In this document: positions 51,848-54,062 of the stretch, one piece after another
Position numbering within the stretch: the stretch's first letter is position 1
Layout of the letters: the number at the start of each line of letters is the position of its first letter
From: Ginsengibacter hankyongi
GTDB lineage: Bacteria; Bacteroidota; Bacteroidia; Chitinophagales; Chitinophagaceae
Assembly: GCF_008710285.1 (NCBI RefSeq)
Contig: NZ_VYQF01000001.1
Location: 1,373,501 to 1,437,500, forward strand
DNA: 64,000 nucleotides
Reading direction: 5' to 3'
Program-made: the position numbers and the translations under genes
Notes under the pieces: model-generated
Seen by the model: only the letters and a program-made list of their open reading frames with translations
Databases searched by the model: none
Told to the model about the DNA's origin: nothing

Positions 51848-52771
51848 ATGATACCAGACTATCAAACATTAATGCTTCCTCTGCTTAAGTTAACTGCCGA
51901 TGGAAAGGAATACAGAGTAAATGATCTTATAGAAATTCTTGCAAATAAATTTAATTTGACTGACGAAGAAAAAGCAGAATTACTCCCAAGTGGTCAAAGC
52001 TTCCTTTTTAATAATAGAGTTGGTTGGGCAAGAACTTATCTCAAGAAATCAGGATTAATTGATGCACCAAAAAGAGGAACTATTATTATTACACCAAGAG
52101 GAAAACAGGTTTTAGATGAAAATCCAAATGAAATAGACGTAAAATTTTTAAGAAGATTTTCGGAGTTTACGGAGTTTATAAATACAAAAAAGGAAGATAG
52201 TCATGAGATCTCATTTAGTTCAAGCCAGCCGGCTATCGATGATCTTTTTAAAGAAACTCCAGAAGAACAAATTGAAGTAGGTTACAGAAAAATTAGAAAT
52301 GGTTTAGAACAAGAAATACTATCAAAACTTAAGTCAGTTCATCCATCTTTTTTTGAAAAAATTGTTGTTGAACTTTTAGTAAAAATGGGTTATGGCGGCT
52401 CCATACAAGATGCAGGAAAAGCAATCGGCAAAAGTGGAGACGAGGGAATCGATGGAATTATTAAAGAAGATAAACTCGGGCTTGATGTTATTTATGTTCA
52501 AGCTAAAAGATGGGAAGGAATAGTTGGACGGCCAGAACTACATAAATTTGTTGGAGCTCTAGCTGGACAAGGTGCTAAAAAAGGAATTTTTATTACTACT
52601 TCTTCTTTTACTAAAGAAGCAAAAGATTACACACCAAAAAATGAAACAAAAATTGTATTGATAGATGGAGAAAAATTAGCTCAATATATGATAGACTATA
52701 ATCTTGGAGTTTCTATTCAAAATATTTATGAAATAAAAAAAATAGATTTAGATTATTTTGGAGAAGAGTAA
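51848..52771 (+). CDS. Mrr-type restriction endonuclease
   Basis: A 307-residue protein with an N-terminal winged-helix domain of the Mrr_N type (residues 1-95, IPDYQTLMLPLLKLTADGK and LFNNRVGWARTYLKKSGLI with ITPRGKQVL) and a C-terminal Mrr-type PD-(D/E)XK catalytic domain (about 165-285): FFEKIVVELLVKMGYGG, Asp202 in GDEGIDGII, and Gln218-x-Lys220 in VIYVQAKRW. Family members are type IV enzymes cutting modified DNA, or stress nucleases. No methylase is nearby, which fits type IV. It starts 4 bases after aspS and its stop is one base before the next start, so it rides in a housekeeping transcript. Its codons look more AT-rich than those of aspS, hinting at transfer (impression only). Confidence 0.92.
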   Translation: MIPDYQTLMLPLLKLTADGKEYRVNDLIEILANKFNLTDEEKAELLPSGQSFLFNNRVGWARTYLKKSGLIDAPKRGTIIITPRGKQVLDENPNEIDVKFLRRFSEFTEFINTKKEDSHEISFSSSQPAIDDLFKETPEEQIEVGYRKIRNGLEQEILSKLKSVHPSFFEKIVVELLVKMGYGGSIQDAGKAIGKSGDEGIDGIIKEDKLGLDVIYVQAKRWEGIVGRPELHKFVGALAGQGAKKGIFITTSSFTKEAKDYTPKNETKIVLIDGEKLAQYMIDYNLGVSIQNIYEIKKIDLDYFGEE

Positions 52772-52772
52772 A

Positions 52773-54062
52773 ATGTTACAGAAAATCATATTGAATAAAT
52801 ATTTTTTCCTTTTATTACTTTTTGTATTTACAACTACCGTACTCTTTGCCCAATACGATGCGCCTCTTTATACGTCTTACACAACTGCTGTTGAACGGGC
52901 TAAATTGCATGACAGGCTCATAAGATATTCCATCAATAAAAGTTTATCTTCTGCATTAAATGATTCAACAGAAGAAAATTGGGAGGACGCCTTTGATGCA
53001 TTGGAAGTGTTGTTGTATAAATCTCCATTAGTTGATGCAAAAGTTCATAAAGCATTCGACGAAGTTGAGACGAGGAGTTTAGATTTTCAAAAAGCGCTAC
53101 TCGGAATTGCTTACACAAATTATCCTGGTATTTTTTTTCAGCAGGTAAAAAAATTACTTAGCAGCACTGATGATCCAAAGGTATTTGCATTGTGCGCTGA
53201 GTATCTGCTGCAGCAAAAAAAAGATCCTCTAATAATTAATACGATCAGTAAATTAATTGAAACAAAATTTGGCGACGAGGGAATTATCAATCCGATTTTA
53301 TATATGTTGCAGGTGCATATATCGGAACAAAAAACCAAGGGAACTTTTTTATCAAATAAATTACTTACCGAACTTTTCAGCAGCAAATTTTTACCTGGCC
53401 AAACCATAGCCTATAGCATTCAAAGAAAAAACCGTAATTACCCGGGGTTAATGATTGTAAGGCGTTACGATGGGAAATTTATAACAGACAGTAATGGTAT
53501 AATTTTCAATATCCCGCAGCTTGCAAGGAGCATTACTAATCTTCCTTTTTATCTGCGGGGCGGAAATACGCCGCAGGGAATATTTTTCATGAATGGTTTC
53601 GGTGTTTCTATGAGTAGCTTTATTGGCCCTACAGCTAACATTCAATTATCAATGCCCGTTGAAGAAAACATTAAAGCGTTTATGCGTGACAGTAGTATAA
53701 CAGATACGACCTGGAACATTGATTATTATAAAAAATTAATACCTGCAGATTTGCAAAACTATTTGCCTTTATTCTATTCCTATTATGCCGGGCTGGCAGG
53801 CCGCACAGAAATTATTGCTCATGGCACAACGATAGACCCTGCTATTTATTCAAAACAACCATATTACCCATTAACGCCAACATCAGGATGTTTATGCACA
53901 AAAGAAATATGGAATGGAAAACGATTAGAAAGCGATCAGCAAAAACTTGTAAATGCATTGTTAAAAGCAGGCGGTGCAAATGGTTACTGCCTGGTTATTG
54001 AATTGGATGATAAACAAGCACCCGTCACTCTTAACGATATAATTCCTTATTTATTTAATTGA
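52773..54062 (+). CDS. Exported protein with L,D-transpeptidase-like motif, otherwise unrecognised
   Basis: A 429-residue protein; ATG at 52773, one base after the Mrr stop. It has a signal peptide (KYFFLLLLFVFTTTVLFAQ). Residues 20-190 are mostly helical, with repeat-like phrases (DAFDALEVLLYKSP, EVETRSLDFQKALLG). The C-terminal half contains IPQLARSITNLPFYLRGGNT, FFMNGFGVSMSSFIGP and then IIAHGTTIDPAIY followed by PLTPTSGCLCTKEIW. His350 and the Ser371-Gly-Cys373 pair resemble the YkuD catalytic His...(S/T)xGC pattern, although the His-Cys spacing (23) is a little longer than usual and the HGChN form is not exact. A divergent peptidoglycan cross-linking enzyme is therefore a hypothesis. Followed by rarA with its own candidate promoter. 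Confidence 0.7.
   Translation: MLQKIILNKYFFLLLLFVFTTTVLFAQYDAPLYTSYTTAVERAKLHDRLIRYSINKSLSSALNDSTEENWEDAFDALEVLLYKSPLVDAKVHKAFDEVETRSLDFQKALLGIAYTNYPGIFFQQVKKLLSSTDDPKVFALCAEYLLQQKKDPLIINTISKLIETKFGDEGIINPILYMLQVHISEQKTKGTFLSNKLLTELFSSKFLPGQTIAYSIQRKNRNYPGLMIVRRYDGKFITDSNGIIFNIPQLARSITNLPFYLRGGNTPQGIFFMNGFGVSMSSFIGPTANIQLSMPVEENIKAFMRDSSITDTTWNIDYYKKLIPADLQNYLPLFYSYYAGLAGRTEIIAHGTTIDPAIYSKQPYYPLTPTSGCLCTKEIWNGKRLESDQQKLVNALLKAGGANGYCLVIELDDKQAPVTLNDIIPYLFN

What the first reader, a model, noticed from the sequence alone, without database searches (positions are those of the whole stretch)
52773..54062. Possible divergent L,D-transpeptidase in an unrecognised exported protein
The C-terminal half has AHGTTIDP and, 20 residues later, TPTSGCLCT, which resembles the His and (S/T)xGC catalytic pattern of YkuD enzymes, preceded by a signal peptide and a long helical N-terminal half I cannot place. 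A second Cys two residues after the first is unusual. If real it is a new cell-wall cross-linking subfamily.
Basis: inference. Interest (0 to 1): 0.5.

Follow-up and report, generated by a model that had tools for sequence, protein, structure and literature searches.

The report
Unrecognised YkuD-like cell-wall enzyme family
An exported protein that standard family databases do not recognise appears to be a very divergent cousin of the cysteine enzymes that trim or link bacterial cell-wall peptides, and belongs to a family found in several Bacteroidota lineages.

Summary
In detail: window 52773-54062 (+) encodes a 429-aa protein with an export signal and with H350 and C373 in AHGTTIDP...TPTSGCLCT. 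The query matches no Pfam family and no NCBIfam family usefully. It belongs to a Bacteroidota family: 76 distinct members aligned, with H350, G351, G372, C373 and R344 in 76 of 76. Three imperfect lines point to a YkuD (L,D-transpeptidase) fold. In a second-look comparison of the catalytic-domain model, the first 39 of 50 rows are YkuD-fold entries (Z 6.8-4.6; ten proteins, 26 rows are LdtMt2), then unrelated rows from Z 2.5. Pfam YkuD matches 8 of 75 scanned members, all below cut-off. The family profile beats 100 of 100 column shuffles against YkuD_2. Against: Foldseek alone found nothing, and the active-site loop is modelled with low confidence. The second Cys is not conserved (35 of 76). 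No member has the Arg two residues after Cys that many cross-linkers have, and the predicted loops resemble L,D-carboxypeptidases and DpaA. I favour a periplasmic cysteine L,D-peptidase that trims or exchanges over a cross-linker. Activity is untested.

The parts
52773..54062 (+). Gene for the 429-aa exported YkuD-like protein (a TTG at 52758 is an alternative start)
52773..52850 (+). Signal peptide, residues 1-26 (...LLLLFVFTTTVLFA|Q)
   Evidence: sequence reading, no predictor run; some relatives instead show a lipobox-like Cys (regex count 12 of 76, at least 2 of them doubtful)
52887..53327 (+). N-terminal helical (HEAT/ARM-like) domain, residues 39-185
   Evidence: AF2 model; VIA-align rows are mostly helical-repeat and other helical proteins, Z up to 12.1, within what helical models reach by common arrangement
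53388..54059 (+). C-terminal YkuD-like catalytic domain, residues 206-429
53562..53579 (+). GNTPQG, residues 264-269, aligned with the TPxG stretch of YkuD domains
   Evidence: G264 and G269 in 76 of 76, P267 in 73 of 76; profile alignment
53802..53804 (+). R344, invariant, six residues before the predicted catalytic His; candidate carboxylate-binding residue
   Evidence: 76 of 76; same spacing as R115-H121 of Tlde1a (passages); role inferred
53820..53825 (+). H350-G351, predicted catalytic His and the triad's small residue
   Evidence: 76 of 76 each
53880..53891 (+). T370-S371-G372-C373, (S/T)xGC with the predicted catalytic Cys
   Evidence: G372 and C373 76 of 76, S/T at 370 75 of 76
53895..53897 (+). 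C375, second Cys; not conserved
   Evidence: Cys in 35 of 76, never Arg

Best explanation
[quoted passage not shown] C373 is the nucleophile, H350 the base, and the carbonyl of G351 orients the His, as in known YkuD enzymes. It most likely attacks the L,D bond after the diamino acid of a peptidoglycan stem peptide to form a thioester. It then more likely passes the acyl group to water or a free D-amino acid (carboxypeptidase or exchange activity) than to a second stem (cross-linking). R344 may hold the carboxylate of a D-amino acid. Shown here: the family, its invariant residues, and fold similarity by a second-look structural aligner, with weak but consistent sequence similarity. Inferred: export, the chemistry, the substrate, the preference for trimming, the role of R344, and a docking role for the N-terminal domain.
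For: Conservation of H350, G351, G372, C373 and R344 in 76 of 76 and constant H to C spacing. Catalytic-domain model: the first 39 of 50 listed VIA-align rows are YkuD-fold entries, among them Pgp2 6xj6 Z 6.8, LdtMt1 5e51 6.7, Csd6 4xzz 6.5, YkuD 1y7m 6.4; the remaining 11 rows are unrelated, at Z 2.5 or less. Pfam YkuD matched 8 of 75 scanned members at E 0.0055-0.54, all over profile positions 32-39 to 123-126; in the five whose Cys I placed, the match ends 0-3 residues after it. Family profile against 30 YkuD_2 domains: 24.05, column shuffles 14.88 sd 2.87, 0 of 100 reaching it; against 73 Bacteroidota YkuD domains 18.95, 2 of 100 reaching it. For trimming: Arg at Cys+2 in 0 of 76, whereas 31 of 33 high-scoring Bacteroidota PF03734 domains have it. 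Section 9 of the DpaA paper says the Arg of many LD-TPases is Ala in DpaA, and that LD-CPases and DpaA have long loops 1 and 3, a helix in loop 3 and a short loop 2. The models place about 55 residues with three helices between strand 287-293 and the His, and 7 residues between strands 269-279 and 287-293.
Against: Foldseek alone found no match at E 0.001 or better, and no LDT is in the 50 rows shown. The best Z of 6.8 is below the 7-8 that the tool calls typical for models without a clear match, the rows come from a second look and not a full search, and 26 of the 39 rows are one protein, LdtMt2. Residues 338-381 have pLDDT under 50; the helical loop before the His is at about 62-68. The query has no Pfam hit, and 0 of the 31 members of A1 match YkuD. 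The Pfam hits are all below the 23.4-bit cut-off, and 7 of the 8 lie in one clade. Of three family consensus sequences one hit YkuD, at E 0.44. In profile tests the N-terminal half scored as well as the catalytic half against the high-scoring YkuD set (15.7 and 16.1), 6 of 200 shuffles reached the score against the 40 other YkuD domains, and YkuD_2 scored much higher than the query family against those 40 (31.1 against 18.9). Absence of Arg at Cys+2 is not diagnostic: 16 of 34 of those other YkuD domains lack it. H to C spacing exceeds the published ranges.
Confidence: 0.6

Rival explanations
1. It is a cross-linking L,D-transpeptidase: the same fold and acyl-enzyme, with a second stem peptide as acceptor, giving 3-3 (or 1-3) cross-links.
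For: Same predicted fold as LdtMt1, LdtMt2 and B. subtilis YkuD (rows tied within 1 Z with the carboxypeptidases). LdtGo shows that divergent YkuD enzymes can cross-link (passages of PMC10864386).
Against: Arg at Cys+2 in 0 of 76; long helical loop before His and short loop 2, as in hydrolytic members. The genome already has five PF03734 matches and one YkuD_2 match, so it need not depend on this protein for cross-links.
Confidence: 0.2
2. It attaches a protein partner to peptidoglycan, or detaches it (like LdtA/B/C or DpaA), with the helical domain recognising that protein.
For: Long helical N-terminal domain; some relatives look like lipoproteins; the loop features resemble DpaA as well as LD-CPases.
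Against: No neighbour gene is shared across lineages in the 28 neighbourhoods compared. No candidate acceptor was identified.
Confidence: 0.12
3. The His and Cys motifs sit in an unrelated fold, for example a non-YkuD cysteine hydrolase.
For: Query itself has no family match; Foldseek finds nothing; low local model confidence; profile tests are weak.
Against: Sequence and structure comparisons converge on YkuD over the same region.
Confidence: 0.07

Closest known systems
YkuD family, Pfam PF03734 (L,D-transpeptidases)
   Same: His-Gly and (S/T)xGC motifs, TPxG stretch, predicted fold
   Different: Below the family cut-off (best 17.7 of 23.4 bits), no Arg at Cys+2, longer H to C loop, long helical insertion before His, extra helical N-terminal domain
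YkuD_2, Pfam PF13645
   Same: Highest profile score of the YkuD-type sets compared (24.05; 0 of 100 shuffles reach it); Ala, not Arg, at Cys+2 in 30 of 30, and an Arg just before the His, at H-5 in 28 of 30
   Different: No hmmscan match to PF13645; the query Arg sits at H-6; query H to C spacing 23
Csd6 / Pgp2 L,D-carboxypeptidases
   Same: Among the top structure rows (Z 6.5 and 6.8, tied with the others); short loop 2 and helical loop 3 (passages)
   Different: No C-terminal NTF2-like domain; loop 3 much longer in the query
Tlde1a (L,D-carboxypeptidase/exchange enzyme)
   Same: An Arg exactly six residues before the catalytic His (R115/H121; passages); one relative matches Pfam Tlde1_dom at E 0.04
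   Different: The neighbourhoods seen hold no secretion-system gene that I recognised; the equivalence of R344 and R115 rests on spacing alone
LdtGo (1,3-cross-linking YkuD-like enzymes)
   Same: Also a very divergent YkuD-domain enzyme with catalytic His and Cys (passages)
   Different: Described from Alpha- and Betaproteobacteria; no direct sequence comparison made here
DpaA
   Same: Hydrolytic YkuD-fold enzyme without the Arg at Cys+2 (section 9)
   Different: Not compared by sequence; a helical N-terminal domain is not mentioned in the passages read

Membership tests
YkuD, PF03734 | Profile score at or above the curated cut-off (23.4 bits) | tested here: not met
   Query: no match. 8 of 75 members match, best 17.7 bits
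YkuD, PF03734 | Catalytic His-Gly and (S/T)xGC | tested here: met
   H350, G351, G372, C373 76 of 76; S/T at 370 75 of 76
YkuD, PF03734 | phi-R-(M/L) after the Cys (motif quoted in PMC12729407) | tested here: not met
   Arg at Cys+2 in 0 of 76
YkuD, PF03734 | H to C spacing within published motifs: H(S/G/D)X14-19C or HXX14-17(S/T)HGC | tested here: not met
   HG-X21-C in the query; H to C spacing 23 in 76 of 76
YkuD, PF03734 | YkuD beta-sandwich fold | tested here: met
   First 39 of 50 VIA-align rows are YkuD-fold entries (ten proteins), Z 4.6-6.8. Caution: low-confidence model, Z under 8, and Foldseek alone listed none
YkuD, PF03734 | L,D-transpeptidase activity or carbapenem acylation | not testable with these tools
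   needs protein
YkuD_2, PF13645 | Match to the family model | tested here: not met
   PF13645 is not among the matches listed at E 10 for the 75 members scanned, though the profile comparison beats 100 of 100 shuffles
L,D-carboxypeptidase of the Csd6/Pgp2 type | Short loop 2, long loop 3 with a helix | tested here: inconclusive
   Predicted in both models, at pLDDT about 62-68 in the helical loop; the two models share most of their alignment
L,D-carboxypeptidase of the Csd6/Pgp2 type | C-terminal NTF2-like domain | tested here: not met
   The protein ends one short helix after the last predicted strand
Tlde1 | Conserved Arg that binds the D-amino acid carboxylate, near the His | tested here: inconclusive
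   R344 76 of 76 at H-6, as R115 in Tlde1a; not superposed
VanW-type L,D-transpeptidases | Match to the VanW model | tested here: not met
   VanW is not among the matches listed at E 10 for the 75 members scanned

The most novel reading that the evidence does not exclude
A Bacteroidota lineage of YkuD-fold enzymes that neither Pfam nor NCBIfam models detect at their cut-offs, with a helical-repeat docking domain and an invariant Arg pocket, trims or exchanges D-amino acids on stem peptides. In sequence terms it is a further L,D-peptidase lineage beside YkuD, YkuD_2, Tlde1 and LdtGo.
Probability: 0.35. Interest if true: 0.6.

Novelty: new variant of a known kind. Interest (0 to 1): 0.42.

Why it matters
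L,D-transpeptidases and their hydrolytic relatives influence wall cross-linking, cell shape and outer-membrane tethering, and carbapenems act on many of them (review passages). Surveys at the PF03734 cut-off would miss this family: 0 of 75 members scanned reach it. My paper searches listed nothing that I recognised as describing it; they cover open-licence papers only, used broad terms, and for most papers I saw the listing alone. The alignment names invariant residues to mutate, so the activity question is directly testable.

Tried and rejected
Cross-linking as the default reading: set aside because of the missing Arg and the loop lengths, not excluded. The second Cys as a catalytic or redox feature: rejected, Cys in 35 of 76. 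Functional partner from gene context: none. In its own lineage the gene lies directly before rarA in 10 of 11 loci (in L012 rarA lies upstream), with aspS within the stretch in 8 of 11 and a putative beta-barrel gene and uvrA in 10 of 11 each; elsewhere the neighbours differ by lineage. rarA rests on Pfam MgsA_C and the barrel on a match below cut-off; aspS and uvrA are named from recall of their sequences.

Sequence search of PDB with the query and two family profiles gave only matches that I take as chance. Foldseek on both models: no LDT in the 50 rows shown of either. VIA-align on the full-length model covered residues 31-189 and showed helical proteins only, which says nothing on the catalytic domain. 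NCBIfam on the query and 54 other members: nothing meaningful (the 20 members of A5 were not scanned there). Viral contigs, two scans: no relative. Phage records: none. Plasmid records: one, Persicobacter sp. JZB09, no gene listed there. PHROGs, PADLOC, CDD and InterPro were not searched.

Profile comparison with home-made alignments is a weak instrument. High-scoring YkuD against YkuD_2 gave only E 0.13, while YkuD_2 against the 40 other YkuD domains gave E 0.0002 and the query family E 0.036, so the query family is the more distant. Against the high-scoring set the N-terminal half scored like the catalytic half. The set of 40 was first extracted badly (29 of 40 obtained, some in wrong frames) and then gave the query a higher score, 25.2, than after correction, 18.9; I use the corrected one. 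Earlier extractions also failed: one search read minus-strand loci on the wrong strand (redone), and one search found 7 of 34 YkuD proteins because its pattern asked for HG where many have HD (redone). Consensus sequences did not improve the Pfam score.

Rows dropped: duplicates between collections and short pieces; L032 was in the 76 but not scanned by Pfam; L080 was left out of the 33-member YkuD set; 6 of 40 other YkuD domains without a Cys motif by my pattern were left out of the Cys+2 count. Genome tallies are lower bounds, because only 4 or 10 first-look candidates per genome were scored. The tree is a quick tree; the careful one was not finished.

Full report
What is there. Window 52773-54062 (+) is an open gene of 429 codons; one base separates its ATG from the stop of the upstream gene. 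The window is a piece of a 5.5 Mb genome. The named relatives found are Chitinophagaceae, several of them Ferruginibacter. The protein begins with a hydrophobic export signal (my reading), followed by a helical half and a mixed C-terminal half. Pfam, NCBIfam and PDB sequences gave no usable match to the query, even at E 10.

A family. Searches found members in 25 of 99 genomes around the query, itself included, in 24 of 395 genomes drawn across the phylum, in 60 of 164 genomes of one other order of the phylum, and on one Persicobacter megaplasmid; none in phage records or viral contigs. One search added ten loci with public records. After removal of duplicates and short pieces, 76 distinct sequences were aligned. 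Invariant in 76 of 76: R221, G225, P258, G264, G269, G285, Y319, P324, R344, I347, H350, G351, P366, P369, G372, C373, E378, W380, G382, S387 and Q389. Residue 370 is Ser or Thr in 75 of 76. The spacing from H350 to C373 is 23 in 76 of 76. The most divergent member, from Persicobacter, is 21-29% identical to the 19 others in A5. C375 is Cys in 35 of 76 and otherwise T, S, A or V.

Is it a YkuD fold? Three tests. (1) Structure. Two AlphaFold models were made from 11 sequences. The full-length model has mean pLDDT 69; the catalytic part (191-429) has 64, with residues 338-381 under 50. Foldseek found nothing for that part. VIA-align 2, a second look at 842 of Foldseek's best chains, put YkuD-fold entries in its first 39 of 50 rows: Pgp2 Z 6.8 rmsd 4.0 over 119 residues, LdtMt1 Z 6.7 rmsd 2.5 over 94, Csd6 Z 6.5 rmsd 3.5 over 121, B. 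subtilis YkuD Z 6.4 rmsd 3.3 over 98, and others down to Z 4.6. These are ten proteins, and 26 rows are LdtMt2; that Bd1075 (7o21) has this fold is recalled, not stated in its row. The next rows, unrelated proteins, start at Z 2.5. Rows within 1 Z are tied, so no single enzyme is the nearest, and Z under 8 alone can mean a common arrangement; the run of one fold and the drop after it are the argument. (2) Family models. Of 75 members scanned singly against Pfam at E 10, 8 match PF03734 (YkuD): L063 E 0.0055, L070 0.016, L212 0.021, L209 0.027, L200 0.081, L064 0.09, L073 0.14, L203 0.54. All cover profile positions 32-39 to 123-126. In the five whose Cys I placed, the match ends 0-3 residues after it. 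No other family matched more than two members in any of the three alignment scans. All 8 are below cut-off. None of the 31 members of A1, which includes the query, matches. Seven of the 8 lie in one clade of 13 rows; L212 is outside it. (3) Profiles. The family's catalytic half scored 24.05 against 30 YkuD_2 domains, with 0 of 100 column shuffles reaching it (mean 14.88, sd 2.87, highest 23.13), and 18.95 against 73 YkuD domains, with 2 of 100 reaching it. An earlier version gave 6 of 200, and against the 33 high-scoring YkuD domains alone the N-terminal half did as well as the catalytic half. No single test is decisive; together they make a YkuD fold likely.

What does it do? In YkuD enzymes the His activates the Cys, with a small residue after the His, and the Cys attacks the L,D bond of a stem peptide (passages of PMC12729407, and PMC4599014). 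H350-G351 and C373 fit. Three features argue against plain cross-linking. First, the Arg that follows many transpeptidase cysteines (GC-phi-R) is found in 0 of 76, against 31 of 33 high-scoring Bacteroidota PF03734 domains (most from proteins of about 500-650 residues), 18 of 34 others, and 0 of 30 YkuD_2, which all have Ala. Section 9 of the DpaA paper (PMC10653827) notes that the residue in DpaA is Ala. Second, the same section describes a short loop 2 and a long helical loop 3 in L,D-carboxypeptidases and DpaA. The two models here place 7 residues in loop 2 and about 55, with three helices, in loop 3, at modest confidence. Third, R344 stands six residues before the His in 76 of 76. In Tlde1a, R115 stands six before H121, forms a salt bridge to the carboxylate of D-Ala or D-Met, and its Ala variant has low activity (passages of PMC9638812). 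The equivalence rests on spacing only. One relative also matched Pfam Tlde1_dom at E 0.04. I therefore favour trimming or D-amino acid exchange over cross-linking, at moderate confidence. The absence of Arg is not diagnostic, and LdtGo shows that odd YkuD enzymes can still cross-link (passages of PMC10864386).

Context. In 11 loci of its own lineage (window plus L006-L015) the gene lies directly before rarA in 10, with aspS in 8 and a putative beta-barrel gene and uvrA in 10 each; in L012 the order is changed. In 17 other neighbourhoods the neighbours differ by lineage. This looks like an inherited single gene without a fixed partner. The host genome also has five PF03734 matches and one YkuD_2 match, so the family adds to ordinary LDTs.

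The N-terminal domain. Residues 39-185 form helices in the model. VIA-align rows are HEAT/ARM, designed repeat and other helical proteins up to Z 12.1, which helical models reach without relationship. A docking role is a guess.

Verdict. A real, conserved family that Pfam and NCBIfam do not recognise, most likely a divergent YkuD-fold cysteine L,D-peptidase. It is a new variant of a known kind. Membership in PF03734 as defined fails on score, on the Arg and on spacing, while the catalytic residues and the predicted fold fit.

Noticed in passing
L159, L160, L162, L164, L174-L180 (unnamed family f37, 11 genomes): The 11 PF03734 proteins translated, one from each of 11 genomes, all have Ser in place of the catalytic Cys (NWT[ND]GS[IV]A), and L176 has also lost the His, although they score above the YkuD cut-off. 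Further PF03734 matches of G130 and G175 were not translated. Four of the 11 genomes (G145, G159, G163, G208) carry one or two copies of the query family, with His and Cys intact.
   Followed up: partly
window 51848-52771 (+): Mrr-type restriction endonuclease gene (Mrr_N and Mrr_cat) between aspS and the query gene; no homologue in the 27 other neighbourhoods compared, so probably an insertion in this lineage.
   Followed up: partly
L169 (G195): A YkuD protein with SNGCIGTKE after the His motif, close to the query's SGCLCTKE; possible bridge between the families.
   Followed up: no
L156, L167, L168, L170-L173: YkuD domains with SHSC, SHAC or SHMC instead of SHGC.
   Followed up: no
G159, G163, G433, G441, G473, G550, G573: Two copies of the query family per genome; in G159, G163, G433, G441 and G473 the copies fall in different places of the quick tree, and some copies look like lipoproteins.
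   Followed up: partly
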